IMG/VR virus record: IMGVR_UViG_3300009093_000525
Coordinates: 1-61,807 of that record
DNA length: 61,807 nucleotides
Strand: one strand, 5' to 3'
From: a virus
Positions 1,567-60,230 of this stretch are shown here, in pieces. The stretch's first letter is position 1. Each line of letters opens with the position of its first letter. The notes under the pieces are model-generated. The model was not told the origin of the DNA. It saw only the letters and a list, made by a program, of their open reading frames with translations, and made no database searches. A program made the translations under genes and the position numbers.

Positions 1567-1641
1567 GGGCGTGTAGCTCAGTGGTAGAGCACTGTGTTGA
1601 CATCGCAGGGGTCGCAAGTTCAATCCTTGCCACGCCCACCA
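1567..1641 (+). tRNA. tRNA-Val(GAC)
   Basis: A full cloverleaf can be folded. The acceptor stem is GGGCGTG/CACGCCC with discriminator A and an encoded CCA at 1639-1641. The anticodon stem CTGTG/CGCAG carries loop TTGACAT, so the anticodon is GAC (valine). The T arm is GCAAG-TTCAATC-CTTGC. The prophage used this gene as its attachment site: everything from 1589 to the 3' end lies within the 54-bp repeat, so the functional tRNA is rebuilt at attL. Confidence 0.95.
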
Positions 1642-1642
1642 G
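1589..1642 (+). repeat. attL core (54-bp direct repeat, left copy)
   Basis: This is identical, base for base, to 60177-60230. It covers the anticodon stem-loop, variable loop, T arm, acceptor 3' strand and CCA of tRNA-Val. The sequences diverge immediately outside (A1588 versus G60176; A1643 versus G60231), which sets the limits. Confidence 0.95.
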
Positions 1643-1647
1643 AAAAA

Positions 1648-1680
1648 GGCCGCTATACCGGGAGGTTAGCGGCCTTTTTT
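1648..1680. terminator. Bidirectional terminator between tRNA-Val and integrase
   Basis: The stem GGCCGCTA/TAGCGGCC (1648-1655/1667-1674), extended by ACC/GGT, has five A residues on its left and six T residues on its right. It can therefore terminate both the rightward tRNA transcript and the leftward integrase operon. The integrase stop codon (1679-1681) overlaps the T tract. It lies outside the att core and was brought by the phage. Confidence 0.85.
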
Positions 1681-2953
1681 ATGCCCGCAGCGGAATGATA
1701 TTCGCAATCTCTCCGGTGTCGGTCCGGTGAAATGCGCCGGGGACGTGGGCTTCGATGTCGTCGATCACTGCCTCGATCGCGGTCAAAGCATCCTTCAGAT
1801 AGTCCGGTTTGAACGGGGCGTAGAGTTCGCTGACACTGTCCAGCTTGCGATGCCCGAGCTGCATCTCGATCTGCTCGTCGCCTACACCTCTATCGCGAAG
1901 CATCTGCGCCATGGACCGGCGAATCAGCTTCATGCCCGCCTCACCATCGGCAGGAAGGCCGATCTCCTCCGCCATCGTATCCCAAGCAGATCGCACGCTC
2001 TTGGCATCGACGAACGTGCCAGCATGCGGCTCGCCCCTGACCAACTCAGCAGCCCGGTCAAACCAAGGCGCGACCTGGTAGGGGATACGGACGGTCGCGC
2101 GGTATTTTCGCGTCTGGCGTCGGTCTCGCGGGTTGAGCTTTAGAACACGCCGATCGCTGTTCCACTGGTCCTTCTCGATGGCCAACGACAGGTCGTGCGC
2201 TGCGTCGGGACGGCAAAGGGTGGCGACTGATACGATCAGGAATCGGTGCAGGGCTGCGCGCTTAACCGGATGCGTCGGCGCGGCCGCGTACCGGAACATG
2301 GTCACCAGCTGGTCGAGGTCAGCTCGATGCTGTGGCGTCCGGTTCAATTCCTTGGTTGCGATTGGCTTGAATTGGGCCGGGCGAGAGGTGTCGCCGCGAT
2401 CATGGGCGGCGTTGATAGCCGCTGCGAGCTGGAGGACGCTGTTTTCGACGGTGCTCGCAGTCCGCTTGCCAGCGAGCGGGTTGCCGGCCGAAGAGACTCG
2501 CGGCAGATCACCCAGCCATTTCCGGAAGCCCTTTATCCAGTCTTCATTGACCTGCTCACACCGGATGTTCGGATCGCGAAGTGTTGCGATGTAGCGCACG
2601 ACATGATTGAGGCGCGGGCGCACCGCATCGATCGACGCCAGGTCGTGGTGTGAGGCCAGATAGTCTGATATCGCCTGGGCTACGAGAAAGCCGGTGTTTC
2701 CGGCTCGCCGCTGGCCGCAGGTTGGGCAGATCGCCGCGCCTTCCGTGTTCTGGAGGTAGTGGCGATCGAGGGCCGCCTTTGCGGAGCCGACATCTGCAGA
2801 GCGTGCAGAAGTGCTTCGGATGCGTCTGCGTTCGGGATCGTACCAGAAGATGGCGAGGTAGGGGCTTCGAAGGGAGCCATCGACGTTTCGGTCCCAGTCG
2901 AGCCAGAAATGACCGCGCTGATAGATGCCCTTCGTCTTTGCCCGTCTCGGCAT
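1679..2953 (-). CDS. int: Tyrosine recombinase / phage integrase
   Basis: This 424-residue site-specific recombinase should catalyse integration and, with a directionality factor, excision at tRNA-Val. The N-terminal arm-binding/SAM-like region is followed by a catalytic domain with R248 (LCRPD), a second arginine box at R345 (KLIRRSM), H368 (LGHR) and the nucleophile Y378 (SELYAPF). The usual histidine of the HxxR box is replaced by K342, as can happen in phage members. A CPTC pair at residues 76-79 is an uncommon addition, and with no second cysteine pair nearby it is not a full zinc finger. The gene points at attL and its stop codon lies in the terminator. I assign no excisionase with confidence. 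Confidence 0.95.
   Translation of the reverse strand: MPRRAKTKGIYQRGHFWLDWDRNVDGSLRSPYLAIFWYDPERRRIRSTSARSADVGSAKAALDRHYLQNTEGAAICPTCGQRRAGNTGFLVAQAISDYLASHHDLASIDAVRPRLNHVVRYIATLRDPNIRCEQVNEDWIKGFRKWLGDLPRVSSAGNPLAGKRTASTVENSVLQLAAAINAAHDRGDTSRPAQFKPIATKELNRTPQHRADLDQLVTMFRYAAAPTHPVKRAALHRFLIVSVATLCRPDAAHDLSLAIEKDQWNSDRRVLKLNPRDRRQTRKYRATVRIPYQVAPWFDRAAELVRGEPHAGTFVDAKSVRSAWDTMAEEIGLPADGEAGMKLIRRSMAQMLRDRGVGDEQIEMQLGHRKLDSVSELYAPFKPDYLKDALTAIEAVIDDIEAHVPGAFHRTDTGEIANIIPLRA
1711..1732. repeat. Candidate integrase arm-type site, left
   Basis: This 22-bp segment matches 60070-60091 at 21 of 22 positions in the same orientation. Each copy contains two direct TCCGGTG units 11 bp apart. It lies 68 bp inside the left core, within the 3' end of the integrase gene. 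Position and symmetry fit an integrase arm site in attP; this is inference. Confidence 0.6.
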
Positions 2954-4878: not shown

Positions 4879-5144
4879 TGCGCCGCTCCCGACTTCACGC
4901 CGGGGATTTCGCGAGCCATGGCCTCGGCTGCCGTGGACCCGCGAATGACCCTCGGCTTGAACCGTGCCGGCTCATCGGTCAGCCGATCGACATACTCTCC
5001 GACGGCACGCTGAGCCTTGGCGAGCCGATCCCACGCCGCGTCCGCGTTCGCCTGGGCTTCGACCAGCGCACGATAGGCGACGGCATGGGCCGCCTTCGCC
5101 GTGCGGATCGCGGCGAGCATCTCCTGAAACGGCGTCGGGTCCAT
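4875..5144 (-). CDS. Hypothetical alpha-helical protein
   Basis: This 89-residue protein is alanine-rich and predicted helical throughout residues 5-60 (coiled-coil-like, 'AYRALVEAQANADAAWDRLAKAQRAV'-type pattern), with a basic C-terminus. It overlaps the GapR-like gene upstream by one base, indicating coupled translation. Function not recognised. Confidence 0.65.
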   Translation of the reverse strand: MDPTPFQEMLAAIRTAKAAHAVAYRALVEAQANADAAWDRLAKAQRAVGEYVDRLTDEPARFKPRVIRGSTAAEAMAREIPGVKSGAAQ

Positions 5145-5386
5145 CAGCTGAGCCCCAACGCAGCTTTATACGTCTCCAGCAGCGCTTCCGCCTCGTCGCG
5201 GGCGTTCTTCTCCATCTTACGGAGCCGGACGATGGCGCGCATGGTCTTGGGGTCGTAGCCCTGTGACTTGGCCTCCAGGTAAACGTCCTTCACGTCGTCC
5301 TGCATGCCCTTGACCTCTTCCTCAAGGCGCTCGATGCGTTCGATGAAGAGGCGCAGCTGGTCGGCCGCGACGTTGCCGTCTGACAT
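5144..5386 (-). CDS. GapR-like DNA-binding protein (DUF2312), early-operon copy
   Basis: This 80-residue protein matches the DUF2312/GapR family almost end to end: 'VAADQLRLFIERIERLEEE', 'DIKDVYLEAKSQGYD' and 'MRAIVRLRK'-type segments. GapR in Caulobacter forms clamps on overtwisted DNA ahead of forks and stimulates topoisomerases; family knowledge suggests this copy may aid phage replication. It lies immediately upstream of the recombination genes' 3' side in the leftward operon. A second, divergent relative is encoded at 17252-17662. Confidence 0.9.
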   Translation of the reverse strand: MSDGNVAADQLRLFIERIERLEEEVKGMQDDVKDVYLEAKSQGYDPKTMRAIVRLRKMEKNARDEAEALLETYKAALGLS

Positions 5387-5409: not shown

Positions 5410-6513
5410 TTATTCGGCGGCGGTCGCGAGGAACGGATCATCGCTGTTCGCCGGCGTCTGCGGTTCATCGGGCGATGCCGAAGCGAACGGCTCGTCATCG
5501 GTCTCGGTGGCGGCCTTGTCGGCATCGGCGCACATGGTCTCGATCTCCGCCATGATCGGCCGGACGACTGGGCGGGCCGCCTTGCCCTCATCGCTCATCC
5601 ACCAGTCCTTGAAGGTGGCGGTCCCGGCGCGTGCCTTGTCGCGAGCGAGGTCCATCAGCTCCTTCTGCTTCTGCGCGCCGCCCTGACCCTTGGCCCACTC
5701 GGCCATGGCCATGCCCGTCTCCACGGACATGGGCCGGCGCTTGTCGAGCAGGTTCTTGAACTGGTCGGCGACCTTGATCTGGTGGACCGGGCAGCCAGGC
5801 GCGATCGGATCGAGGATGACCATGGTGGTCATCTCGAACATCAGATCGCCGTCGCTCGCAGGATCCCACGGCACGTCCTCGCGCCGCGTCTTGGTCTTGC
5901 GGGCGTTCTTCGCCTTCTCGCCGAAGCCTGACTGCATCACGGGCTTGGCGCGGGTGCAGATGATCACGTTCGTCTTGGCGCGGACGATCCGGTCGATCAG
6001 GCGCCGGTACCGCGGCTTCACCTCGGCCCATGCGAGCTGGCTGTATTTCCCCGGATCGACGGGCGACGAGTTATTGTAGCGCTGGTTGCGCGCCTCGGCC
6101 TCGCGGACCAGGCGGTCCAACACCTGGGCGTGAAGGTCGAGGACGCCGCCGACCCCTTCCCATGCATGGGAGAAACTGTCGATCACGAGGACCGGGAGGC
6201 CGGCCGCCTCTGCGGCGTCGATAACCTCAATCCAGCGCTCCGGGCCGAAGCCAACCATTTCGCCCGCATCGTTGATGGCGGTGAAGTCGAAGTGCGCCAT
6301 CTCCGGGAAGGCGGCCTTGTAGTGGAGCGCGCGCTTGTTCTCGGTGTCGACGTAGCCGATCGGCGCGCCGGCCTTGCCCGTCATGACTTGGGCGATGCCG
6401 CGGGCCATCAGCAGGGCGGTGAAGGTCTTTCCAGTGCCACTTCCGCCCGAAAGGCCGATGGCGAGGTTCAACGGGTCGTTGATCTCGGTGACGGGGATGA
6501 ACCGAATTCCCAT
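5410..6513 (-). CDS. AAA-family ATPase, Sak4/RecA-like phage recombination protein
   Basis: This 367-residue ATPase has a Walker A GGSGTGKT at residues 23-30 and a Walker B LPVLVID ending at D112. The layout is that of the RecA-like P-loop proteins (Sak4-like) that phages place next to an exonuclease for single-strand annealing or strand exchange. The start is the ATG of a TAATG overlap with the exonuclease stop; the same frame is open further upstream but that part is antisense-like to the exonuclease gene. The last ~40 residues are acidic and low complexity. Role in homologous recombination/replication is inferred from family and context. Confidence 0.85.
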   Translation of the reverse strand: MGIRFIPVTEINDPLNLAIGLSGGSGTGKTFTALLMARGIAQVMTGKAGAPIGYVDTENKRALHYKAAFPEMAHFDFTAINDAGEMVGFGPERWIEVIDAAEAAGLPVLVIDSFSHAWEGVGGVLDLHAQVLDRLVREAEARNQRYNNSSPVDPGKYSQLAWAEVKPRYRRLIDRIVRAKTNVIICTRAKPVMQSGFGEKAKNARKTKTRREDVPWDPASDGDLMFEMTTMVILDPIAPGCPVHQIKVADQFKNLLDKRRPMSVETGMAMAEWAKGQGGAQKQKELMDLARDKARAGTATFKDWWMSDEGKAARPVVRPIMAEIETMCADADKAATETDDEPFASASPDEPQTPANSDDPFLATAAE

Positions 6514-12235: not shown

Positions 12236-12646
12236 ATGACCGCCCTCTGCCCCTGCTGCGGCTACGATCTCGCCCAAGACGAGGTGATCGAGCGCGACGG
12301 CATCCGTTTGGAGCCGCGCGGTGACGTTCTCGTCAACGGTGCTCCGGTGCGGCTGACGCCGTCCGAGCGGATCATTCTTTCGTCGCTGATGAAGGCCAAC
12401 GGCATGGCGATAAGTGGTGCCGCCCTGCACGAGCGTATGGACAGTCGGGCAGACGGCAATGTCGTCGAGGTCATGGTCCGCCGCGTCCGCGAGAAGCTCG
12501 GCGACGCCTGTCGCATCGAGAACATACGGGGCATCGGATACCGCTGGGTCTCCACCGCCGGCGGATCGGGGCGCGTGCTCGCCGACGGTGAAGCGCTGCA
12601 AGTTCATGCCGGTGCTGATCGCATCGTTTCGGAGGTGCATCAGTGA
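12236..12646 (+). CDS. Zinc-knuckle plus OmpR-type winged-helix regulator
   Basis: This 136-residue protein has an N-terminal CPCCGYDL zinc motif (residues 5-12). It is followed by a PhoB/OmpR-type winged helix at about residues 30-110 ('LTPSERIILSSLMKANG', 'VVEVMVRRVREKLG', 'IENIRGIGYRW'). There is no receiver domain, so it is not a two-component regulator. It probably regulates phage or host transcription. It is conserved in type in alphaproteobacterial phages, and its target is unknown. Confidence 0.8.
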   Translation: MTALCPCCGYDLAQDEVIERDGIRLEPRGDVLVNGAPVRLTPSERIILSSLMKANGMAISGAALHERMDSRADGNVVEVMVRRVREKLGDACRIENIRGIGYRWVSTAGGSGRVLADGEALQVHAGADRIVSEVHQ

Positions 12647-13095
12647 CGGGCGGCGCCATCATCACGCCGGAACTGGCAGACGCCGCGATTTACCGCGCGC
12701 TCAGCCTATTCATGGGCGATGGCCGGAAATTCAGCGTCGAGGACGTGGCGATCGGCACCAGCATTCCGGCACGCACTCTCTATGGGTTCGTGGCATCGGG
12801 GCCGGAAGATCGCCGGCGCCCGAAAGGCTGGCATCTCCTGACGCTGCAGCAGTTCTTCGGCGTGGCGTTCACGGACAAGCTGCTCAGCCCGATCGGGCAG
12901 GGCGGTCGCAGCCTCGAAGCCGAGGAAGGCTCGCCCGGCGTCGTCATGGCGCACCTGACCCGCGATCTCGCGCAGATCGCGGGATGCGGTGTCAACGGCG
13001 CCTGGAATCACACGCACGAGCGCCAGCTGGAGAAGGCCGCAGACGACGCGATCCTCATCCTGACGCCGCTCTCTTCATTGGGGCACGCAAAATGA
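12643..13095 (+). CDS. Hypothetical regulator-like phage protein
   Basis: The GTG start forms a GTGA overlap with the winged-helix gene. The 150-residue product contains an HTH-like segment (FSVEDVAIGTSIPARTLYGFV) and resembles small phage regulators placed in the CII position, but sequence alone does not establish that. It is coupled to the next gene by an ATGA overlap. Confidence 0.65.
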   Translation: MTGGAIITPELADAAIYRALSLFMGDGRKFSVEDVAIGTSIPARTLYGFVASGPEDRRRPKGWHLLTLQQFFGVAFTDKLLSPIGQGGRSLEAEEGSPGVVMAHLTRDLAQIAGCGVNGAWNHTHERQLEKAADDAILILTPLSSLGHAK

Positions 13096-13442
13096 TCGAT
13101 CAGGACATCATGGTCTACGGGCTCGGCGTGATCGCCGGCAGCGGTATCCTCGGGACCGTCATCGCCACGACGCTGGCGTTCGACTGGCGCAGCAAGGCTA
13201 CCAAGTCGCAATCGGAAGCGACCGCCGCCAAGCGCGAGGCTCGTCTGTCGCACGCCATCTCGGAGAGCTGGCAAAAATCTTACGAGGTTGCTGCGTCGGA
13301 TGTGCTCAGCCTGACCGACCAGCTGCGCGTCGCAAACGGCTTAGCCAATCCCGAGCCGAAACTCATCCGCATTCCGAAGGGCCAGCCTGGTGCCGGTCGC
13401 TTCATCCCGAACCCGAAATTGAAAGCTGAACTGACCGCCTAA
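13092..13442 (+). CDS. N-terminally anchored membrane protein
   Basis: This 116-residue protein begins MIDQDIMVYGLGVIAGSGIL, a single transmembrane segment. A charged helix (KSQSEATAAKREARLSHAIS) and a basic C-terminus (LIRIPKGQPGAGRF) follow. It is translationally coupled to the upstream gene and directly precedes the clamp gene. Function unknown. Confidence 0.65.
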   Translation: MIDQDIMVYGLGVIAGSGILGTVIATTLAFDWRSKATKSQSEATAAKREARLSHAISESWQKSYEVAASDVLSLTDQLRVANGLANPEPKLIRIPKGQPGAGRFIPNPKLKAELTA

Positions 13443-13458: not shown

Positions 13459-14688
13459 ATGGATATGCCGATGGGCGCTGCGATCGACGTCGCAGCGGAT
13501 GACGAAGTGCGTCCTGCGAAAGTCAGGTCGCAGGTGTTCCAGCGTGCGGACCTGATCCGCGCGATCCTCGGCGCCTGCACGGTAATCGAGCGGCGCAACA
13601 CGATCCCGGTCCTGGAGACGGTGCTGATCACCATCCAGGACGACCGGATCGTCGCTCGTGCCACCAACCTGGACCAGGAGGTGACGCTCGACCTCGGCGA
13701 GGCGCCGCAGCGCGGGGCGATCAGCCATTGCCTGATGAGCCCGCATGCCGTCGCAGGGTTACTCAAGGGCATGACCGGCGATCATGTCTCGCTGCTGCCG
13801 ACCGACGGCGGCAAGATCGCCATGTCTGGGCAGGATTTCACCGCCAAGATCTCGACCCTCCCGGCGATTGACTTCCCGCGCATCAGCCAAGGCCCGGAGG
13901 GCTGGGCAACCGACATCCCGGCGTCTGTGCTTGATCTGATGATCCGCGTGTCGGGTGCCATGTCTCGGGAAGAGACGCGGTACTATCTGAACGGCCTCCA
14001 CATCGGCCATCTGCGCGACTGGACCTACCGCATCTCGGCGACGGATGGGCACCGGCTCTACTTCGCCGACGTCGAATGGCCCGGAGAGCAGAAGCTGCCG
14101 AACGGCGGCATCATCATCCCGCGCCACGCTGTCGAGAAGATGGCGCGCTACCGCGATCGCAAGTCTGATCAGCCGGTGCGACTGTCGGCGCACGCTGCCG
14201 CGGCCACGAACAATTTCATCGACTGGGCCGGCTCTGGCGCTCCGTCCGCCAAGCTTCAGTTCGGCGCCACCGTCCTCAAGACCAAGCTGATCGACGGTAC
14301 GTTCCCGGATATCAGCCGCGTAATTCCGGATGCAGGCGGGTCGACCTGCAGCTTTCGAGCCGCGACTGCCGACTTGCGCCGCGCGATCCGAGCGCTCGCT
14401 TTCGGCGCGACTGAGAAATCGCCGGCAATCCGTCTTTCGCTTGGCGACGGAAAGCTCCGGATCGGCGCGAAGTTCGCGATCGACGGCGTAGACGCCGAAT
14501 ACTCGATCGAGGCCAAGACGACTGGCCATCTCGAGATGGGATTTAACGGTCACTACCTGCTCGCAGTCCTCGACGCGATGCACACCGACGAAGTCGTCTT
14601 CCTCCTTCGTGACCAGTCGGCACCCGCCCTGATCGTCGATCCGACGGGCGAGGGCATGCGCGCCGTCCTCATGCCGATGAGGCTTTGA
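13459..14688 (+). CDS. Phage-encoded DNA polymerase III beta clamp (DnaN-like)
   Basis: This 409-residue protein matches the bacterial beta sliding clamp over its full length. It has three repeated domains, 'RRNTIPVLETVLI' and 'SATDGHRL' motifs, the late 'FNGHYLLAVLDAM' segment and the canonical C-terminus ending VLMPMRL. The family member encircles DNA and tethers the replicative polymerase. No DNA polymerase is visible in the element, so this clamp probably recruits the host Pol III, partly replacing the host clamp or escaping its regulation. Its start follows a purine-rich GGGGGAG. It heads the replication module. Confidence 0.92.
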   Translation: MDMPMGAAIDVAADDEVRPAKVRSQVFQRADLIRAILGACTVIERRNTIPVLETVLITIQDDRIVARATNLDQEVTLDLGEAPQRGAISHCLMSPHAVAGLLKGMTGDHVSLLPTDGGKIAMSGQDFTAKISTLPAIDFPRISQGPEGWATDIPASVLDLMIRVSGAMSREETRYYLNGLHIGHLRDWTYRISATDGHRLYFADVEWPGEQKLPNGGIIIPRHAVEKMARYRDRKSDQPVRLSAHAAAATNNFIDWAGSGAPSAKLQFGATVLKTKLIDGTFPDISRVIPDAGGSTCSFRAATADLRRAIRALAFGATEKSPAIRLSLGDGKLRIGAKFAIDGVDAEYSIEAKTTGHLEMGFNGHYLLAVLDAMHTDEVVFLLRDQSAPALIVDPTGEGMRAVLMPMRL

Positions 14689-14831
14689 TGGAGAAGGTCC
14701 GCTTCATCCCCGTGGCCGGCCGCCAGTCGTCCCCCGCCCGAAACGGGCGGCCTACCGCCGTCACCGATCGATATCCATTCCGTGGTCACCGGACCTGCGC
14801 CGAGTGGTCAGAGCCGGAGGACGTGAAATGA
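14688..14831 (+). CDS. 47-residue basic linker gene between clamp and ParB-like genes
   Basis: The ATG at 14688 overlaps the clamp stop (TGATG) and the stop overlaps the next ATG (ATGA), so the short frame is coupled on both sides. The product (MEKVRFIPVAGRQSSPARNG...) is basic and probably unstructured. It may be a small adaptor or only a translational bridge. Confidence 0.55.
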   Translation: MEKVRFIPVAGRQSSPARNGRPTAVTDRYPFRGHRTCAEWSEPEDVK

Positions 14832-15658
14832 GCCGCCCCGCCACCGACCGCCTCAAGGTCAATCCGCCGATCGGTCTGCGCCCGAGCCTGGAGAACCATC
14901 GGCTCGAGAGCCTGAACGTCGATCCAGAATATCAGCGTTCGATCGACAATGGGTCGAGCCAGACGCTTATCCGGCGCATCGCGGTGTTCTGGGATTGGAG
15001 CCTGTTCCAGCCACTGGCCGTTTCTCGCCGTCCCGATGGATCGCTGTTCGTCGTCGATGGTCAGCATCGCCTGACCGCCGCCAGGATGCGGGCCGATATC
15101 ACCGATCTGCCTTGCGTGGTCTCGCCATACGCATCGGCTGCCGACGAAGCAGCATCGTTCGTAGCGATGAATGCTCAACGCCGCCCGCTCGGCGCGATGG
15201 ACTTGTTCAAGGCGGCGCTCGCGGCCGGCGACATGGAGGCAATGCGCGTCATGGCCGTGATCTCGGCCGCCGGCCTCTCGCTGGCTCCGCACAGCAACCC
15301 GACTGCCTGGAAGCCCGGACAGATCTCGAACATCGCCGGGATCCGCACCGCCTTCAAGGTGCAGGGCAGAGACGCCACGTCTGCTGCGCTCGTCGCGTTG
15401 TCGACCGCCTATGCGGGCCAGGTACTCCAGTACGCCGGCACGATCTTTCCGGGTCTTGTTCGCGCCTATGCCCAACTGCTGCCCTCACGGTCGTTCGATC
15501 CGGACCTGATGATCGATATCGTCGGTAGTGCGCCGCAGAAGCAGTGGGTCGACGAGATATTCCTCGAGAAGGCCTCCAGTAGCGCTGCGCTCAATGTGTC
15601 CGGGGAAGCGGTGTTCGTCCGCTCCTATACGGAAGCATCTGAAGAAGAAGCGGCATGA
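14828..15658 (+). CDS. ParB/Srx-like N-terminal domain protein (DUF6551-type)
   Basis: This 276-residue protein has the ParB/Srx-like core with LRPSLENHRLESLNVDPEYQ, LAVSRRPDG and the signature VVDGQHRLTAARM at about residue 85. The fold is used by ParB CTPases, ParB-like nucleases and Srx-type enzymes. The 'VDGQHR' pattern is typical of phage DUF6551 proteins of unknown function. A GGAGG precedes the ATG. It is coupled to the GP88 gene, a recurring pair in phages. Confidence 0.8.
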   Translation: MSRPATDRLKVNPPIGLRPSLENHRLESLNVDPEYQRSIDNGSSQTLIRRIAVFWDWSLFQPLAVSRRPDGSLFVVDGQHRLTAARMRADITDLPCVVSPYASAADEAASFVAMNAQRRPLGAMDLFKAALAAGDMEAMRVMAVISAAGLSLAPHSNPTAWKPGQISNIAGIRTAFKVQGRDATSAALVALSTAYAGQVLQYAGTIFPGLVRAYAQLLPSRSFDPDLMIDIVGSAPQKQWVDEIFLEKASSSAALNVSGEAVFVRSYTEASEEEAA

Positions 15659-16389
15659 AGGTCTCGGCTCTCCGCCGGTTCGCGACCGTCGTTCCGCACA
15701 GTGCTGGCGTCGTGATCGGCGCCCTGCATCCGGCCTATCGCACCGGGCGCTCGATCTTCTCCAGCCGCGTGTTCGATCCCGACGAGGTGCAGCGCGTACT
15801 GAAATCCGGTCACCAGAGCCGCAAGATCGGCAAGACCGTCACCAAAGGCCACTGGCGCGGGTTCCCGATCTTCACGCTGACCCTCGAAGAGCGCGCGACC
15901 TGCCCGAGGTCATGCGAAGAATGGGCTCGCTGCTACGGCAACAACATGCAGGCGGCAGAGCGTATCGTCGCGGGACCGGCGCTGGAGATGGCGCTCCGCG
16001 ACGAACTCGCCGAGCTCCAGCGCAAGCACCCACGTGGTTTTGCGGTGCGCCTGCACGTTCTCGGCGATTTCTATTCGACCGAGTATGTCGATCTCTGGGC
16101 CGATGCTCTGGCGACATGTCCGGCGTTGCGGGTCTTCGGCTTCACCGCTCGGGACCCCATAAGTGACCCGATCGGCGAGGCAATCGCTGTGCTCGCCCAG
16201 GCACATCCCCACCGCTTCGCGATGCGCTTCTCCGGATATTCCGGACGGACGCGCGGCGCGATCACCATCGAGCATGACGAACAGACGGATCACATCGTCT
16301 GTCCGGCCCAGCTCGAAAAAACCGACTGCTGCGCGACCTGCGCTCTCTGTTGGCACAGCGATCGCACGATCGCCTTCATCAGGCACTGA
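15655..16389 (+). CDS. GP88-domain protein, Cys-rich
   Basis: This 244-residue protein matches the phage gene-product-88 domain (PF17338). It has 'RATCPRSCEEWARCYGNN' near residue 80 and a second cluster with DCCATCALCW near the end, suggesting metal or Fe-S binding. A conserved 'RLHVLGDFYSTEYVDLW' lies between. Biochemical activity is unknown. It overlaps the ParB-like gene by an ATGA. Confidence 0.8.
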   Translation: MKVSALRRFATVVPHSAGVVIGALHPAYRTGRSIFSSRVFDPDEVQRVLKSGHQSRKIGKTVTKGHWRGFPIFTLTLEERATCPRSCEEWARCYGNNMQAAERIVAGPALEMALRDELAELQRKHPRGFAVRLHVLGDFYSTEYVDLWADALATCPALRVFGFTARDPISDPIGEAIAVLAQAHPHRFAMRFSGYSGRTRGAITIEHDEQTDHIVCPAQLEKTDCCATCALCWHSDRTIAFIRH

Positions 16390-16836: not shown

Positions 16837-17252
16837 GCGAGCGCCCCAACTGCCTCAACCGCGATGACTGCCAGGCGAAAACGCCGGGGAAGCACTGCCG
16901 GCGCTGCGCTATGATCGCGGTCCGCTCGGTCGACCACCTCAACAGGTGGCGCGCGACGCCCGAAGGAAAGCGGGTCCAGCGTGATCGCGCGATGGTGCGT
17001 CTCGCCAAGATGAACAGCCCGGAGGCCCTTGCGGCACGCAAGATAAAAATCCGGAAGCAGAGGCTTGGCTGGTGCCCGCCCCACCGGATCGACGAGTATC
17101 TCGCTCTCGCGCGTAAACTCGGTGCTCCCGATGCCCGCCGACTGATCCTGCAGGATGAGGGTGATCGTGCTGATGGCGCTCGAAACGCCATTCAGCGGAT
17201 CGCCGACGAACAAGTGGCGCGACACCAGCGCCAGCTGGCGGAGGCATATTGA
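16833..17252 (+). CDS. Small zinc-binding phage protein
   Basis: The GTG start overlaps the HNH stop. The N-terminus (CLNRDDC...KHCRRC) has four cysteines for one zinc, followed by a basic helix. A later 'WCPPHRIDEYLALARKLG' segment recurs in small phage proteins. A DNA-binding role is possible but unproven. Confidence 0.7.
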   Translation: MSERPNCLNRDDCQAKTPGKHCRRCAMIAVRSVDHLNRWRATPEGKRVQRDRAMVRLAKMNSPEALAARKIKIRKQRLGWCPPHRIDEYLALARKLGAPDARRLILQDEGDRADGARNAIQRIADEQVARHQRQLAEAY

Positions 17253-17662
17253 TGCGTGGACACCGACGCCTCCGCATATTCCTCAAGGCCCGCCGCTCCG
17301 GCGCTGATCTCGCGGGTGCTGCAAGTCTTGCGGAGATGGAGATCCGCGAGGCCGAGCTGCACGACGAGATCGAGCAGTCCGGCGGCTATTCCGACATCAT
17401 CGTCAAGCTGGAGATCCGTGGGTCGAACCAGGGCGCTGCGGACGATGTCCTCAAGGGCTTCGTCGAGCGGATCGTGCGTCTGAAGGATGAGGTGAAGGGC
17501 CTTCAGGAGGACATCAAGACGGTCTTCCAGGAAGCAAAGTCCGCCGGGCTCAGCGACAAAGGCATCAAGAACATCATTAAGCTGATGGAGCTCGATCCCG
17601 ACAAGCGCGCCGAGCACGACGAGATCATGATGATCTATCGTGAAGCGATGGGGATCGACTGA
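17252..17662 (+). CDS. Second GapR-like (DUF2312-type) protein
   Basis: This 136-residue protein has a basic N-terminal extension followed by a DUF2312-like domain: 'GAADDVLKGFVERIVRLKDEV', 'KTVFQEAKSAGLSDKGIKNI' and a final 'YREAMGID'. It is clearly related to the 80-residue copy at 5144-5386 but diverged, and longer by ~55 residues. The ATG is the TGATG start. Position beside the replication genes supports a role on replicating DNA. Alternative in-frame ATG at 17336 lies nearer the domain. Confidence 0.8.
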   Translation: MRGHRRLRIFLKARRSGADLAGAASLAEMEIREAELHDEIEQSGGYSDIIVKLEIRGSNQGAADDVLKGFVERIVRLKDEVKGLQEDIKTVFQEAKSAGLSDKGIKNIIKLMELDPDKRAEHDEIMMIYREAMGID

Positions 17663-18516: not shown

Positions 18517-20670
18517 GTGACGCCAGAACAGAAGCAGCTCGACGAGTTCCGGGCGTTCATCAAGGGCCTCTGCGGCACCGCTCCGGCCAAGATCACGGCC
18601 GACGGCAAGTGGCATCGCTTCCGCATCGAGGACACGCGCTCGAAGTCGTCGGCGCCTGGCGCGTACCTGCTGCACATGGACGAGCATCCGGTCGGCCTGT
18701 TCATGGATTGGCGCAAGCAGGGCGAGAAGTTCCGCTGGACGCTTGGTGCGGATGCCGGCCCCGTCGATCGCGCGGAATTCAAGCGGCTGGCGCAGGAATC
18801 GGAAGCGAAGCGCCGTGTCGGTTATGCTGCGGCCGCAGCGAAGGCGCTGACCTTCTTCCAGAAGGAATGCGTGGCGATCAACGGGGCCTCGCACCCCTAC
18901 CTCGATCGCAAGAAGATCGCCCCGCACGGGACGCGACAGGGATCGGGCAAGCCATTCGGCCTGAGCGACCAGCCGTGCGTCATCGTCCCCATCCGCGGGC
19001 CGGACAACAAGGCGCTGACGCTCCAGGCGATCCGCGCGGACGGCGAGCGCCGGTTCTGGCCAGGCTCGACCACGGAAGGCGGCTATACGCTGATCGGCCG
19101 GGACGACGGGCAGACAACCATCGTGCTGTGCGAGGGCTTTGCCACCGGTGCCACGATTCACGAGGCGACCGGCTGGCTTGTCGTCGTCTGCCTGTCTGCG
19201 TCCAACATGGTGCGGATCTCGCGCTGGGCGGGGCACCGCTGGACCGGCCGCACATTCATGGTGGCCGGCGATGACGACTGGCATCTGGAGCTCAAGGAAA
19301 AGCCCCAGCCCAACGAAGGGCGCGAAGCTGCCATCAAGGCCGCGCGCAACCTCGGCTGCCGCTACGTCATGCCCGACATGCAGGGCGCCGTCACCAACGG
19401 TGGCGACGACTTCAACGACCAGGCAGCCGAATACGGCATCGGCGACGTCTCCGAAACGTTCCTGCGCGCGTTCGATGATCCGGAGCAGCAGCTGCCTGCC
19501 GAGCCCGATATCGCGGAGCCTGACGGTCTCGCGGGCGACGAGCTCGGATCGCTCGACGAGGCTGATTTCGGCCCCGAGCCCCAGCGCTCGGCGCTCCAGC
19601 TTATCTCGCCGTCGCAATGGGCCGGCAAGCCGATCCCTCCTCGCGAGTGGCGCCTCCAGGACCTCATCCCGATGGGACAGGCGACCCTGTTCACCGGCGC
19701 CGGCGCCGTCGGCAAATCGCTGGCCAATCAGCAGATGACGACCGCGATCGCGATGGGCATGCCGTTCCTCGGCGTGAAGACGCTGCCATCCCCGGCGCTC
19801 TACATCACGTGCGAGGACGACCCGGACGAGCTCCAGCGCCGCCAGGTCGCGATCTGCGCGATGATGCGCGTCCCGCTCGAAGCAACTGAGGGCGTGGTGT
19901 TCCTGCTCAGCCTCTATGGCGAGCTGGGCAACTCGCTGTGCACGTTCGATGCAGACGGCAAAATGGTCGTCACCGAGCGCTTCGAGCAGATCGTCGAGAC
20001 CTGCCGCGCCCGCGGCATCCAGCATGTCACACTCGACAACACCGCCCACCTTTTCACGGGCAACGAGATCAACCGCTATGAGGTCGCAAGCTTCGTAAAC
20101 CTCTGCAACCGCATGGCGCGCGAGATTGAGGGGACCGTCGTCATCGTCGGTCACCCCAACAAAGCCGGAGACAGTTACTCCGGCTCGACCGCCTGGGAGA
20201 ACCAGGTCCGGTCACGTCTCTTCATGGAGACACCCAAGGGCGAGGATGGGATCGTCGTAGATCCCGATCTTCGTGTCTTGCGCAACGAGAAGGCCAACTA
20301 CGCGAAGCGGGATAGTGAAGTCCGCTTCTACTGGTTCAGCGGCGCCTTCATCCTCGAGGACGAGTTGTCCGACGACGAGCGAAAGCGCCTGGCCGAGAAC
20401 GCTGCCCAACACCACGACGACCAGCTGTTCCTCAAGTTGCTGGAGCAGCTGACCCGGGAGAAGCGGCACGTCAGCCACTCTCTCAATGCCGGGAACTTCG
20501 CGCCCAAGGTCATGGCCACGATGGCCGAGGCGAGGGGCGCGACCAAGAAGCAGTTCGTATCGGCGATGGAGCGCCTGTTCCGCGACGAGGTGATCGCGAC
20601 AGGCCAAGCGCTCTGGATCGGCCCGGATCGTCATGCGGTGATCGGCATCGCCCTCAAGGAGAAGCGTTGA
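18517..20670 (+). CDS. Toprim primase - RepA-type helicase fusion
   Basis: This 717-residue replication protein has an N-terminal primase-like part with the Toprim acidic residues E206 (LCEGFATG) and D252-D254 (VAGDDDWH). The C-terminal P-loop ATPase has Walker A GAGAVGKS at 394-401 and an ITCEDDPDE motif, as in RepA/AAA_25 hexameric helicases. No zinc-binding primase domain is obvious. It would open the origin and prime phage DNA, with host Pol III held by the phage clamp. GTG start at 18517. The iteron cluster begins 26 bp after its stop. Confidence 0.9.
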   Translation: MTPEQKQLDEFRAFIKGLCGTAPAKITADGKWHRFRIEDTRSKSSAPGAYLLHMDEHPVGLFMDWRKQGEKFRWTLGADAGPVDRAEFKRLAQESEAKRRVGYAAAAAKALTFFQKECVAINGASHPYLDRKKIAPHGTRQGSGKPFGLSDQPCVIVPIRGPDNKALTLQAIRADGERRFWPGSTTEGGYTLIGRDDGQTTIVLCEGFATGATIHEATGWLVVVCLSASNMVRISRWAGHRWTGRTFMVAGDDDWHLELKEKPQPNEGREAAIKAARNLGCRYVMPDMQGAVTNGGDDFNDQAAEYGIGDVSETFLRAFDDPEQQLPAEPDIAEPDGLAGDELGSLDEADFGPEPQRSALQLISPSQWAGKPIPPREWRLQDLIPMGQATLFTGAGAVGKSLANQQMTTAIAMGMPFLGVKTLPSPALYITCEDDPDELQRRQVAICAMMRVPLEATEGVVFLLSLYGELGNSLCTFDADGKMVVTERFEQIVETCRARGIQHVTLDNTAHLFTGNEINRYEVASFVNLCNRMAREIEGTVVIVGHPNKAGDSYSGSTAWENQVRSRLFMETPKGEDGIVVDPDLRVLRNEKANYAKRDSEVRFYWFSGAFILEDELSDDERKRLAENAAQHHDDQLFLKLLEQLTREKRHVSHSLNAGNFAPKVMATMAEARGATKKQFVSAMERLFRDEVIATGQALWIGPDRHAVIGIALKEKR

Positions 20671-30632: not shown

Positions 30633-31004
30633 ATGTCGAAATTCCAGAAGGGGCAGTCCGGCAATCCGGGCGGTAAGCACAAGACCACGATCGAAATCCT
30701 CGTCGACGGCGAGATACGCAAAGTGACGCTCGGCGATATCGCCCGCGCCCACACCGTCACTGCGATCAACCGGCTCGTGAAAATCCTGAACGATGAGAAG
30801 GCACCCAAGCCAGCGCAGGTCTCGGCCGCGACGGCGTTGCTCGACCGTGGTTGGGGCAAGCCGAAGCAGGTCCTCGAGCTTGGCGGCATCGACGGCGAAC
30901 CGATTCAGACCGAGAACCGCGATTACTCTGGCCTGACTGTCGACGAGTTGCGCACGCTGGAGGCGATCCGTGCAAAGCTCCCGGACACTCCCACCGCTCA
31001 CTGA
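30633..31004 (+). CDS. DUF5681 protein, putative small terminase subunit
   Basis: This 123-residue protein begins MSKFQKGQSGNPGGKHK, the DUF5681 signature, and continues with a helical domain (LGDIARAHTVTAINRLVKIL). DUF5681 proteins lie directly before terL in many phages and probably act as the DNA-recognising small terminase subunit. The terL start lies inside its last codons. Confidence 0.8.
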   Translation: MSKFQKGQSGNPGGKHKTTIEILVDGEIRKVTLGDIARAHTVTAINRLVKILNDEKAPKPAQVSAATALLDRGWGKPKQVLELGGIDGEPIQTENRDYSGLTVDELRTLEAIRAKLPDTPTAH

Positions 31005-32457
31005 CATCCAGCGCGCGCTCGCTGAGCGCAGCCTCGCGGACTTCATACGGATCGGTTGGCGCTACATTGACCCGGCTGATTACATCACCAACTGGCACAT
31101 CGATGCGATCTGTGAGCATCTCGAGGCGGTCTCGAAAGGTCAAATCCGGCGCCTGATCATCAACGTGCCGCCGAGGCACATGAAGTCGATCTCGGTGTCA
31201 GTCGCGTGGCCCGCGTGGACATGGATCCAGGATAACGACGACGCGCCGCTGGCGGGTCCAAAGGTTCGCTTCCTCGCCAGCTCTTACGCACATACGCTTT
31301 CAATCCGAGACAGCGTGAAGTGTCGTCGTCTGATCGAGAGCCCTTGGTACCAGGAAAACTGGGGCGATCGGTTCGCGCTGACCGACGACCAAAACACCAA
31401 GATCCGGTTCGAGAATGATCACCACGGCTACCGGATCGCAACGTCCGTCGACGGTACCACGACGGGCGAGGGCGGCGATGTCGTTCTTGTCGATGACGCC
31501 ATGTCGGCTGGCGAGGCGAACAGCAAGACCGCGCAGGACCGCGTGATCAGCTGGTGGGACGACGTCATGTCGACCCGTCTGAACGACCAGAAGACGGGAG
31601 CGTTCGCCGTGATCGCGCAGCGGCTGAGTGAGCGGGACCTGATCGGCCACATCCTCTCGAAGGGCGGCGACGAGTGGACGCACCTCTGTTTGCCGGCGCG
31701 TTATGAGAAGGATCATCCCCACGTCTGGGCGCGGGATCCGCGAAAGGAAGAGGGCGAATTGCTCTGGCCCGCTCGCAACGGCGAACCGGAGCTGCAATCG
31801 CTCGAAGCCAGTCTGGGTGTCTATGGCACCGCCGGCCAGCTGCAGCAGCGGCCATCTCCGGCCGGTGGCGGCATCTTCAAGGCCGAATGGTGGAAATATT
31901 ACACGCCGGCATCGTTGCCGATCATCAAGCGTATCGTGCAAAGCTGGGATACGGCTTTCAAGACGAAGACCGCGAACGATTTCTCCGTCTGCACGACATG
32001 GGCACAGTGCGATAACGGCTACTACTTGCTCGATGTCTGGAAGCAGAAGGTCGAGTTCCCAGAATTGAAGCGTCTGGTCGTCTCGAAGGCCGCGCAGACG
32101 TGGACGGGAATGAAAGCCAGTGCGATCCTGGTCGAAGACAAGGCGTCTGGGCAGTCGCTCGTCCAGGAGTTGCAGCGCGACACGCTGCTGCCGATCGTCC
32201 CGGTCAAGGTTGATACGGACAAGGTCTCGCGGGCTTACGCCGTCACGCCGCTGATCCAGTCTGGGCGCGTCTTCCTTGATGAAGATGCGGCATGGCTGGC
32301 TGATTTCGTAGCGTCGCTGTCCGGGTTTCCGAACGGCGCTCATGACGACGACGTCGACAGCACGACGCAGGCGCTGAGCTATTTGTCCGACGGCCATGGC
32401 CTCGACGGCTGGTTCGCCTACATGGCCGAGAAGCTGGCGCCGCAGCAGGCCGCCTGA
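30970..32457 (+). CDS. terL: Terminase large subunit
   Basis: This 495-residue packaging motor has a variant Walker A PPRHMKS at residues 67-73, Walker B VVLVD ending at D175 and a C-terminal RNase H-like nuclease with D327 (QSWDTAF), E389/D390 (LVEDK) and D459-D461. It cuts concatemers and drives DNA into the prohead through the portal. The GTG at 30970 has a GGAGG five bases upstream and overlaps the small subunit gene by 35 bp. Confidence 0.95.
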   Translation: MQSSRTLPPLTDIQRALAERSLADFIRIGWRYIDPADYITNWHIDAICEHLEAVSKGQIRRLIINVPPRHMKSISVSVAWPAWTWIQDNDDAPLAGPKVRFLASSYAHTLSIRDSVKCRRLIESPWYQENWGDRFALTDDQNTKIRFENDHHGYRIATSVDGTTTGEGGDVVLVDDAMSAGEANSKTAQDRVISWWDDVMSTRLNDQKTGAFAVIAQRLSERDLIGHILSKGGDEWTHLCLPARYEKDHPHVWARDPRKEEGELLWPARNGEPELQSLEASLGVYGTAGQLQQRPSPAGGGIFKAEWWKYYTPASLPIIKRIVQSWDTAFKTKTANDFSVCTTWAQCDNGYYLLDVWKQKVEFPELKRLVVSKAAQTWTGMKASAILVEDKASGQSLVQELQRDTLLPIVPVKVDTDKVSRAYAVTPLIQSGRVFLDEDAAWLADFVASLSGFPNGAHDDDVDSTTQALSYLSDGHGLDGWFAYMAEKLAPQQAA

Positions 32458-38018: not shown

Positions 38019-38030
38019 CAGGAGGCCGAG

Positions 38031-38549
38031 ATGGTCGAGAATGATGATCCGTTCGCGGTGCCGGCCGATAATGCCGAGCAGTCCGCTCCGGAGTCGGCGG
38101 TGGTAGCAACCACGCCTGTCGCGTCTGCGGAGACTCCAACGCCGACGATCGAGCCTGAGATTCCCGTCGAGCCGCGCCAGCTGATCCTTTACGGATCGAG
38201 CGTGCTGCCGGCGACCTTCGAGATCGGCCGAGAGACCGTGCAGTTGGGCACTATCGTGTCCGCTGCGTTCGAAGCGTCCGGCATGGCCGAAGATGCCTGG
38301 AACGACCTCGTCGACGCCGATCGCGACGTGCTGCTCAGCGCCGAACTCGCGAAGCGCGGCTATGTCGCGCCCGCCCAGGAGGCCGAGATGGTCGAGAATG
38401 ATGACGCCGATGTGTTCGGCGGCCTCGTTCCGATGACCCATCCCGATGGTGGCGCCTGCGACCTCTTCGAAGAGATTGACGGGAAGCTCCTCGTGCCGAG
38501 CGACATGGTCGAGACCATGACGGCCCACGGCTTCCAGGTGGACGCCTGA
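38031..38549 (+). CDS. Head accessory protein with duplicated start region
   Basis: This 172-residue protein has a low-complexity, Pro/Glu-rich N-terminus and a C-terminal unit starting at residue 120. The first 29 bp around its start (38019-38047), including GGAGG, ATG and codons MVENDD, recur exactly at 38376-38404 in frame. The second copy may allow a separate 53-residue product from ATG 38388. Function is unknown; position suggests a head-decoration or connector role. Confidence 0.7.
   Translation: MVENDDPFAVPADNAEQSAPESAVVATTPVASAETPTPTIEPEIPVEPRQLILYGSSVLPATFEIGRETVQLGTIVSAAFEASGMAEDAWNDLVDADRDVLLSAELAKRGYVAPAQEAEMVENDDADVFGGLVPMTHPDGGACDLFEEIDGKLLVPSDMVETMTAHGFQVDA
38376..38404 (+). 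repeat. Internal duplicate of ribosome-binding site and start codon
   Basis: This 29-bp segment is identical to 38019-38047. It contains GGAGG followed by ATG at 38388, in frame with the main gene. It looks like a tandem duplication of the gene start and could be a second translation initiation site. Confidence 0.75.
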
Positions 38550-49205: not shown

Positions 49206-51815
49206 ATGGGCGGCAAAACGACATCCACGACCGCGACCAAGCTCGATGGTATCTCGATCCAGTCCTCCGTCTTGGGATCGGTCGTCCCGCGAGGATGGGG
49301 GACCGCGCGCGGAAGCTGCAACCTGGGCTGGACCGGGGCCTTCACCGCGATCCCGCACACGACGACGACCAAGTCGGGGAAGGGGCTCGGCGGCAAGTCG
49401 AAGAACACGACCTACACCTATACCGCCAGCCTCATCCTGTTCATCGCCGACGGCCAGATCACCAGCATCCGCACGGTCTACAAGGACCAGGCCGTGTTCA
49501 CCAACGGCTCGACGTCGGCGATCGCGCAGGCCGGCCTGAGCCTCGCGACGGGCGCGGTCGACCAGCCGGTCTGGGGCTACCTGACCTCCAAGTTCCCGTC
49601 GCAGGCGCTGTCCTACTCAGGGCTGACCTACGCCTATGCGGCGGACTACGATCTTGGCGATAGTGGCAGCATCGCGAACCACGGGTTCGAGATCGTTTTC
49701 CCCGTCAAAATGGCCGGCTTGGACGACGCCGATCCGAAAGACATTGTCACCGATTTCCTGACGAACCCCACGCTCGGCATTCCCGGCTGGTCGTCGTCGC
49801 TGCTGGCCGATCTGAGCGATTACTCGCTCTATTGCCGGGCCTCCAACCTACTGCTGTCGCCGATCCTCGACAGCCAGCGTACCGCGTCCGACTTCCTCAC
49901 CGAGATCACCGACGCTTCGAATTCCGATCCATTCTGGTCGGAGGGTGTGCTGAAGATCAGGCCGCGAGGCGACGGTCCAGTCACCGGCAACGGTATCACG
50001 TGGACGCCGAACCTGACGCCGATCTATGATCTCGATGAGGACGACTTCTCGCCCGAGGAAGGCGAACCGCCGGTCACCCTCAACATCATGGACCAGACCA
50101 ACGCCTACAACGTGGTCCAGGTCGAATTTCTAGACCGGGCGAACCAGTACAACACGGCGATCCAGCCTTCGTCCGATCTCGACAACATCATCACCTACGG
50201 CCGGCGGGTGCAGGATCCGACGAGCTGGCACAGCATCTGCGACGCTTCGGTGGCTGCGATCGCCTCTCAATTGCTCTGCCAGCGGACGCTCTACATCCGC
50301 CGCCAGTTTGTTTTCCGCCTTCCTTGGGATTTCGTTTTGCTGGAGCCGACCGATCTGGTCACGCTGACCACGCGCAGCGACCAGCTGAAACTGAACCGCC
50401 AGCTGGTCCGCATCCTTGAGATCGACGAAGACGAAGATGGCCTCCTCACCTTCACGGCCGAGGAGGTGATCGTCGGAACATCGTCCGCAGCGCTCTACGC
50501 CGCCCACAGCAGCGGTGGCTACCAGGGCAACACGGATGTGGCGCCAGGCTCGGTCTCGTCGCCCTTTCTGATCAATGCGCCGTCGTCCATGACAGGGACC
50601 AACCCGGAAGTCTGGTGCGCTGTCGCCTCGACGTCGCCGACGTGGGGCGGCTGCGAAGTCTGGGTCAGCGTCGACGGCGACAGCTATTCGATGATCGGCA
50701 CGGTCAACGGTCCAGCCCGCTACGGCGTGTTGACAGCCTCACTTCCGAGCCACGCCGATCCTGACAGCACGAATACGCTCTCGATCGACCTATCGGCATC
50801 GGTAGGGGCGCTGCTGGGCGGCACCGTGGCCGAGATGAATGCCGCGGCGACACTCAGTTTGGTCGGTGATGAGCTTGTCGCCTACCAGGATGCCGACCTC
50901 ACTGGCGCAAACACCTATGACCTGAGCCCGCTGCGCCGTGGGCTGTACGGGACCATCATCGGCGCGCACGCCGTCGGTGACCGCTTCGTGCGCCTCGACG
51001 ATGCGATCTTCAAGTTCGACTATACCGGTCTGAACGTCGGCTCGACGATCTACGTGAAACTGCCTTCGTTCAACATCTACGGGAGGGCGACCGAGGATCT
51101 TTCGACCGCCACGGCCTACACGGTCAGCTTGGTGCCGGCGACCGCTTTGCCTGATGAGGTGACGGGCCTCGCGCTCGCACACGCGTGGAACGGATCAACG
51201 CTTGCCGTGGTCTGTGATCCGTCGGCGCGCGCGGAAAACTACAAGTTCCGATTCTTTGACACGGACGAGACGACGCTCTTGCGCGAGATCGTCACGACGA
51301 CGCCCAGCGCCTCGTACACCTCGTCGCTCGCCGCGCAGGATGGCGTCCGCCGTGCCTATGCAATCGAGGTGATCGCCTCCAATGCGGCCGGGGACGCTTC
51401 GCCCTCGGCTTGGCTGACGGTCACCAACAATGCACCCGACGCGGTGACAACGCCCGCGATCCCGGATGCGACGACCACGGTCACGGCAACCTGCGACGCT
51501 AGCGCGGACACGGACTTAGCCGGCTACGCGCTGTTCTATTCCTCCACGTCGGGATTCGATCCCAGCACGGCAGGCTACGTCGTCACTTGTGGCATTCCGT
51601 CAATCCCACTCTACGGCCTCGCATCGGGCACATATTATGGCCGCATCGCGGCGTTTGACGGGTGGTCAGCCGACCCTGCGTTTCTGAACCTCTCGTCCGA
51701 GATCACCTTCCACGTGAGCACCGGCGGCGGATCGACGCCCTCGGGCGGGGGGGCAGGCGGCGGCGGTGGCGGCGGATATTCCGGCCTGCCGAGAAGCCAA
51801 AACACGGCCTATTAG
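49206..51815 (+). CDS. J-like tail tip / host specificity protein
   Basis: This 869-residue protein fits the GTA ORF15/phage J tail-tip family. The start (TTSTTATKLDGISIQSSVLG) and central hub resemble the J core, followed by Ig/FN3-like domains near the C-terminus and a glycine-rich end. It would seat on the distal tail and bind the receptor or fibre. The ATG follows a GGAGG. Confidence 0.85.
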   Translation: MGGKTTSTTATKLDGISIQSSVLGSVVPRGWGTARGSCNLGWTGAFTAIPHTTTTKSGKGLGGKSKNTTYTYTASLILFIADGQITSIRTVYKDQAVFTNGSTSAIAQAGLSLATGAVDQPVWGYLTSKFPSQALSYSGLTYAYAADYDLGDSGSIANHGFEIVFPVKMAGLDDADPKDIVTDFLTNPTLGIPGWSSSLLADLSDYSLYCRASNLLLSPILDSQRTASDFLTEITDASNSDPFWSEGVLKIRPRGDGPVTGNGITWTPNLTPIYDLDEDDFSPEEGEPPVTLNIMDQTNAYNVVQVEFLDRANQYNTAIQPSSDLDNIITYGRRVQDPTSWHSICDASVAAIASQLLCQRTLYIRRQFVFRLPWDFVLLEPTDLVTLTTRSDQLKLNRQLVRILEIDEDEDGLLTFTAEEVIVGTSSAALYAAHSSGGYQGNTDVAPGSVSSPFLINAPSSMTGTNPEVWCAVASTSPTWGGCEVWVSVDGDSYSMIGTVNGPARYGVLTASLPSHADPDSTNTLSIDLSASVGALLGGTVAEMNAAATLSLVGDELVAYQDADLTGANTYDLSPLRRGLYGTIIGAHAVGDRFVRLDDAIFKFDYTGLNVGSTIYVKLPSFNIYGRATEDLSTATAYTVSLVPATALPDEVTGLALAHAWNGSTLAVVCDPSARAENYKFRFFDTDETTLLREIVTTTPSASYTSSLAAQDGVRRAYAIEVIASNAAGDASPSAWLTVTNNAPDAVTTPAIPDATTTVTATCDASADTDLAGYALFYSSTSGFDPSTAGYVVTCGIPSIPLYGLASGTYYGRIAAFDGWSADPAFLNLSSEITFHVSTGGGSTPSGGGAGGGGGGGYSGLPRSQNTAY

Positions 51816-51826
51816 CGGAGACGCTT

Positions 51827-58900: not shown

Positions 58901-58917
58901 CGACCACTCCCTCGGCG

Positions 58918-60176: not shown

Positions 60177-60230
60177 GCACTGTGTTGACATCGCAGGGGT
60201 CGCAAGTTCAATCCTTGCCACGCCCACCAG
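60177..60230 (+). repeat. attR core (54-bp direct repeat, right copy)
   Basis: This is the displaced 3' part of host tRNA-Val, identical to 1589-1642. The 5' half of the tRNA is absent, so this copy is not a functional gene. Confidence 0.95.

What the first reader, a model, noticed from the sequence alone, without database searches (positions are those of the whole stretch)
13459..14688. Phage-encoded beta sliding clamp without a phage polymerase
A full three-domain DnaN homologue opens the replication module, yet no DNA polymerase gene is visible. The phage may load its own clamp on host Pol III, perhaps to avoid host regulators or clamp-targeting defences.
Basis: partly seen in the sequence, partly recalled or inferred. 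Interest (0 to 1): 0.7.

Follow-up and report, generated by a model that had tools for sequence, protein, structure and literature searches.

The report
Prophage sliding clamp, no own polymerase
A dormant virus in a bacterial chromosome carries its own ring-shaped DNA clamp but no DNA-copying enzyme, so it most likely puts its ring under the host's polymerase; this is a known phage habit, and the fresh detail is that the docking pocket is unchanged while the seam that closes the ring has drifted away from the bacterial one.

Summary
Window 13459-14688(+) encodes a complete three-domain beta sliding clamp (Pfam, PHROG 947, PDB sequence matches, AlphaFold model with TM 0.81-0.91 to E. coli beta). 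It lies in a complete prophage flanked by 54-bp tRNA-Val att repeats. No family A, B, C or Y polymerase was found in the window. It is not novel in kind: about 50 phage records and more than 500 viral contigs encode such clamps. Among 73 clamp-bearing records none has Pol A and only one has Pol III alpha, so 'clamp without polymerase' is the usual state here; own-polymerase exceptions exist in other phages. Best reading: host clamp loader and host Pol III use the phage ring at phage forks opened by the phage primase-helicase. The peptide-binding pocket keeps 21/21 host-conserved residues, so escape from pocket-binding regulators or toxins by pocket change is not supported. The clamp belongs to an old phage-only clade (100/99), not a recent host copy. 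New detail: in that clade dimer-interface positions have lost the host consensus far more than other positions (15% vs 46% kept, p about 0.001), unlike other phage clamps (71% vs 68%), suggesting a private ring; a hypothesis.

The parts
1589..1642 (+). attL core, 3' part of tRNA-Val (1567-1641), 54 nt
   Evidence: Identical 54-nt copy at 60177-60230; tRNA
60177..60230 (+). attR core, second copy of the 54-nt repeat
1679..2953 (-). tyrosine integrase next to attL
   Evidence: phrog_1 integrase 7e-11, PF13102
5144..5386 (-). GapR-like DNA-binding protein 1
   Evidence: PF10073 9e-34
5410..6513 (-). RecA-like AAA_24 ATPase (Sak4-like by neighbourhood)
   Evidence: phrog_1366 1e-57, PF13479; Sak4 name by analogy with phage 16-3
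6513..7538 (-). exonuclease VIII-like nuclease (DUF3799)
   Evidence: phrog_412 3e-69, PF12684
10764..11561 (-). CI-like repressor with S24 peptidase
   Evidence: PF00717 5e-19, phrog_4
12236..12646 (+). winged-helix DNA-binding protein, early in the rightward operon
   Evidence: PF00486 5e-12
12643..13095 (+). small gene of unknown function, overlapping both neighbours
   Evidence: overlaps read in sequence
13092..13442 (+). 116-aa protein with an N-terminal hydrophobic segment, directly upstream of the clamp
   Evidence: sequence; no Pfam match
13459..14688 (+). beta sliding clamp (DnaN homologue), 409 aa; about 23 N-terminal residues poorly ordered in the model
13978..14073 (+). codons 174-205, which hold the pocket motifs RYYL (174-177) and TDGHRL (195-200)
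14665..14685 (+). codons 403-409, C-terminal pocket motif VLMPMRL
14804..15658 (+). ParB-like / DUF6551 protein
   Evidence: PF20188 3e-11, phrog_1033 5e-18
15655..16389 (+). GP88-family protein, shared with related clamp phages
   Evidence: PF17338; 53-59% identity in L065, L066, L074, L079
17249..17662 (+). GapR-like DNA-binding protein 2
   Evidence: PF10073 6e-21
18517..20670 (+). TOPRIM primase fused to RepA-like (RecA-fold) helicase
   Evidence: PF13362 + PF13481, phrog_2249, RSF1010 RepA 1g8y 7e-5
30970..32457 (+). large terminase subunit, start of structural genes
   Evidence: phrog_38 2e-101

Best explanation
The gene encodes a prophage-owned beta sliding clamp. After induction, the rightward early operon makes the clamp together with a TOPRIM primase-helicase. 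The host clamp loader opens and loads the phage ring at primers on phage DNA, and host Pol III alpha docks on it through its ordinary clamp-binding motif. The phage thus supplies its own rings for its many forks while borrowing the host polymerase. In this clade the ring probably closes through its own dimer interface, so phage and host subunits would not mix. Shown: the intact clamp sequence and predicted fold, the intact pocket, the lack of a detectable polymerase, the operon and prophage context, and the old phage lineage. Inferred: loading by the host loader, use by host Pol III, and the separate dimer.
For: Three clamp domains. Model pLDDT 88.5 with TM 0.81/0.90 to E. coli beta. Pocket 21/21 host-conserved residues kept, against 62/142 elsewhere (Fisher p 2e-7). 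No Pol A, B (PF00136), C or Y in the window. Primase-helicase in the same operon. The same arrangement, clamp plus recombination and primase-helicase genes with no polymerase, in Rhizobium phages 16-3 and RHph_TM3_3_14B. Pol A in 0 of 73 and Pol III alpha in 1 of 73 clamp-bearing records. Phage-only clade 100/99. Interface drift in that clade.
Against: No biochemical test. Many temperate phages lack a polymerase anyway and no base rate was measured, so the co-absence is consistent with host Pol III use but does not prove it. No phage protein carries a clear clamp-binding motif beyond chance. A polymerase family not covered by the scanned models could be missed; the PF03175 control was silent. 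The host was not identified closely.
Confidence: 0.72

Rival explanations
1. The phage clamp is mainly a recruiter or decoy. It draws host clamp partners (Pol IV/V, MutS/L, ligase, HdaA) to phage DNA or away from the host ring, changing host replication control, with Pol III processivity secondary.
For: The intact pocket would bind any host clamp-binding motif. In Caulobacter HdaA binds the clamp by a QFKLPL motif (PMC3836487). T4 gp45 is a precedent for a phage clamp with non-replicative duty (PMC9690074).
Against: It sits in an operon with a primase-helicase, and the fold and pocket look fully replicative. No accessory partner gene was found.
Confidence: 0.13
2. The clamp is a counter-defence or inhibitor-escape device. 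It replaces a host clamp blocked by a toxin, antibiotic or rival phage protein.
For: Clamp-targeting toxins exist (SocB in Caulobacter, RipA in pneumococcus; PMC12795458).
Against: Such inhibitors act at the hydrophobic pocket, which is unchanged here (21/21). No PADLOC match.
Confidence: 0.07
3. The clamp partners a divergent phage polymerase hidden among the unknown genes.
For: Some clamp phages do carry a polymerase: Perkons has Pol III alpha, Pthi1 a Y-family polymerase, Loki is described with Pol B plus clamp (PMC5313236).
Against: Four families negative in six frames. Nearly all plausible large frames have other assignments.
Confidence: 0.04
4. It is a decaying or recently captured host dnaN with no role.
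For: It is a DnaN homologue, and spare dnaN copies are seen in Agrobacterium genomes.
Against: Only 26-34% identity to host clamps. It sits deep in a phage-only clade with an intact frame, a strong Shine-Dalgarno and a conserved pocket.
Confidence: 0.02

Closest known systems
PHROG 947 phage 'DNA polymerase processivity factor' (beta clamps of Rhizobium phages 16-3 and RR1-A, Aurantimonas AmM-1, Paracoccus Pthi1/Pyei1/Psul1, Caulobacter Sansa)
   Same: Three-domain DnaN fold, conserved pocket, early/replication location, mostly no phage polymerase
   Different: About 31% identity. The window's clade has lost most host-like dimer-interface residues, whereas 16-3-type clamps keep them
Mycobacteriophage Corndog (Cluster O) beta clamp
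   Same: Phage-encoded Pol III beta subunit, with a ParB-like protein and an AAA ATPase in the same genome (PMC4351075)
   Different: Actinobacterial host; not compared by sequence here
Host chromosomal DnaN (Alphaproteobacteria, E. coli)
   Same: Predicted fold (TM 0.81/0.90), pocket residues
   Different: 26-34% identity, separate lineage, divergent interface, N-terminal tail
T4 gp45 clamp system
   Same: Phage-owned sliding clamp
   Different: T4 has its own polymerase and clamp loader and a trimeric two-domain clamp (PMC3012046, PMC4858162)

Membership tests
Bacterial-type beta sliding clamp (DnaN) | Three clamp domains, PF00712, PF02767 and PF02768 | tested here: met
   all above cut-off
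Bacterial-type beta sliding clamp (DnaN) | Clamp fold | tested here: met
   predicted model pLDDT 88.5; Foldseek to E. coli beta E 3.5e-33, TM up to 0.82/0.91
Bacterial-type beta sliding clamp (DnaN) | Hydrophobic peptide-binding pocket residues | tested here: met
   21/21 host-conserved residues
Bacterial-type beta sliding clamp (DnaN) | Head-to-tail homodimer ring around DNA | not testable with these tools
   Only monomers can be modelled; interface positions diverge
Bacterial-type beta sliding clamp (DnaN) | Raises Pol III processivity after loading by the DnaX complex | not testable with these tools
   needs biochemistry
Phage clamp without phage polymerase (PHROG 947 type) | Encoded within a phage genome, not host flank | tested here: met
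   between att repeats 1589-1642 and 60177-60230 with integrase, CI and terminase
Phage clamp without phage polymerase (PHROG 947 type) | No replicative polymerase in the genome | tested here: met
   PF03175 inconclusive because its control was silent
Phage clamp without phage polymerase (PHROG 947 type) | No phage clamp loader (DnaX/HolA) | tested here: inconclusive
   none among the gene products scanned with Pfam/PHROGs; no six-frame scan was made

The most novel reading that the evidence does not exclude
The window's clade of phage clamps has re-specified its dimer seam so that phage subunits cannot mix with host subunits, while keeping an identical polymerase-docking pocket. This would be an orthogonal ring that works with the host polymerase but is immune to subunit exchange, and would make clamp dimer specificity directly testable.
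Probability: 0.35. Interest if true: 0.5.

Novelty: new member of a known kind. Interest (0 to 1): 0.3.

Why it matters
Phage-owned beta clamps are widespread but, in the papers searched, not studied as a group. If the phage ring runs under host Pol III with a private dimer seam, it offers natural orthogonal clamps. They could show what limits host clamp supply during phage growth and test whether phage and host forks share rings. It also cautions that 'clamp without polymerase' is not in itself a sign of a new replication strategy.

Tried and rejected
Clamp-binding motif search in the prophage proteins: no strict pentapeptide; two relaxed and one hexapeptide-like hits, at or near shuffle expectation. 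The one in the small GapR protein lies in its own conserved helix, so it was rejected. phrog_906 'DNA polymerase/primase' was rejected as evidence of a polymerase because only the ATPase region matches. PHROG 3007/12598 'RusA-like' matches to the clamp were judged label errors. PF03175 search: its control stayed silent, so not used. Host identification through the flank flavin reductase reached only 54% identity; the host is left as probably alphaproteobacterial. Genome contigs gave only two Agrobacterium prophage clamps. Acinetobacter 'phage' MD-2021a clamp dropped as mis-binned host dnaN (dnaA-dnaN-recF). A first tree without close relatives left the window on a long branch and was replaced. 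The window-only interface test was not significant (p 0.10); only the clade-level test is. No sigma-70 promoter upstream.

Full report
What is there. The frame 13459-14688(+) encodes 409 aa with the N-terminal, central and C-terminal beta-clamp domains, each above Pfam's cut-off. It matches phrog_947, 'DNA polymerase processivity factor', at 5e-48 and PDB beta clamps at 2e-42. The AlphaFold model (41-row alignment of phage relatives) has mean pLDDT 88.5, with a poorly ordered N-terminal tail of about 23 residues. Foldseek's best hits are E. coli and other bacterial beta clamps at TM about 0.81/0.90, and in the viral library phage clamps such as that of Caulobacter phage Sansa.

Context. The window is a virus record of 61.8 kb that holds a whole prophage. 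An identical 54-nt repeat lies at 1589-1642, inside tRNA-Val, and at 60177-60230, with an integrase beside the first copy. Outside lie a response-regulator gene and a flavin-reductase gene, presumably host. A leftward operon holds an exonuclease VIII-like nuclease, a RecA-like ATPase, a GapR-like protein and an S24 repressor. The rightward operon carries a winged-helix protein, two small genes, the clamp, a ParB-like/DUF6551 protein, a GP88 protein, an HNH protein, a second GapR-like protein and a TOPRIM primase fused to a RepA-like helicase. Terminase, portal and tail genes follow. The clamp is thus the first recognisable replication gene, not the first gene of the operon.

No polymerase. Six-frame searches of the window for Pol A, Pol III alpha, Y-family and Pol B (PF00136) domains found nothing while their controls rang. 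PF03175 was also negative, but its control was silent, so it does not count. No clamp-loader family appeared in the family scans of the genes.

How unusual is it? A protein search of the phage collection found 52 records; one checked record (H27) is a host dnaN, and the two Salmonella draft contigs (H23, H24) may be too. Of 73 clamp-bearing records tested (window included), none has Pol A and one (Psychrobacillus phage Perkons) has Pol III alpha. Of the first 27, one (Paracoccus phage Pthi1) has a Y-family polymerase and none has PF00136. Some of these records may be fragments. Rhizobium phages 16-3 and RHph_TM3_3_14B show the same logic: clamp, recombination genes and a primase or primase-helicase, with no annotated polymerase apart from a 'DNA polymerase/primase' label on the primase-helicase of 16-3. 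A clamp has been noted in Corndog (PMC4351075) and in a Thermus aquaticus prophage with primase and helicase (PMC4605624). Loki is described with both Pol B and a clamp (PMC5313236), so the pattern is common but not universal. I did not measure how often matched phages without a clamp lack a polymerase.

Lineage. The window clamp pairs with L065 (about 45% identity, support 100/99) inside a 13-member phage-only clade (100/99), away from the clade that holds all host DnaN rows. Identity to host clamps is 26-34%. Several clade members share the GP88, ParB-like or GapR neighbours. L065 carries a DUF1376-like initiator after its clamp; that label is my reading of the translation, not a family search, and no relative of this window's primase-helicase was found in the L065 stretch. 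So this is not a recent capture from the host.

How it probably works. Of 21 host-conserved pocket residues the window keeps 21, against 62 of 142 other conserved positions (Fisher p 2e-7). Part of the pocket lies in the seed motifs used to collect L065-L144, which biases that set, but the window itself and the phages were not chosen that way. An intact pocket means that host Pol III alpha, the clamp-loader delta subunit and other motif-bearing partners should bind (established knowledge of clamp-binding motifs). The same fact speaks against escape from HdaA or SocB-like binders, because those use a clamp-binding motif or this pocket (PMC3836487, PMC9690074, PMC12795458). No phage protein has a clamp-binding motif beyond chance.

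The unexpected detail. At 15 host-conserved dimer-interface positions (a list from my own knowledge of E. coli beta, for example I78, L82, F106, L108, I272, L273) the window's clade keeps on average 15% of the host residues, against 46% at other conserved positions (p 0.0009) and 39% within domains I and III (p 0.005). The other phage clamps tested keep 71% against 68%. In the window, F106 is Ala, L273 is Gly and R269 is Ala. This was noticed after the fact, rests on alignment in a divergent region, and for the window alone is not significant (p 0.10). It suggests that these phages use a different seam and so a ring that does not mix with host subunits. It could also mean a weak dimer or misalignment.

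Verdict. The finding is a divergent member of a known phage habit, with one testable twist.

Noticed in passing
5144-5386(-) and 17249-17662(+): Two different GapR-like (PF10073) proteins in one prophage. GapR-like genes lie close to the clamp in several related viral contigs (L065, L067, L069, L080, L137; 14 of 96 clamp loci have one within the fetched DNA).
   Followed up: partly
15655-16389(+): GP88-family protein shared at 53-59% identity with several clamp phages (L065, L066, L074, L079, L085, L096), a recurrent neighbour of unknown role.
   Followed up: partly
58250-58996(-): SRAP (SOS response associated peptidase) gene near attR, on the strand opposite to the late genes; possibly a cargo gene.
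   Followed up: no
38019-38047 and 38376-38404: Perfect 29-nt direct repeat 357 nt apart, largely within the gene at 38031-38549.
   Followed up: no
51662-55099(+): 1145-aa frame with no Pfam or PHROG match after the tail protein gene, probably a tail fibre or host-recognition protein.
   Followed up: partly
12236-12646(+): Stand-alone OmpR-type winged-helix domain without a receiver domain in the early operon, a possible early regulator.
   Followed up: no
13459-14688(+): PHROGs 3007 and 12598 ('RusA-like Holliday junction resolvase') match parts of the clamp, so those PHROG labels look wrong.
   Followed up: no
L036-L040: Agrobacterium pusense LMG 25623 has three DnaN genes and A. arsenijevicii KFB 330 two; of the extra copies, L040 groups with phage clamps in the tree and L038/L039 are the prophage copies behind L013/L014.
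   Followed up: partly
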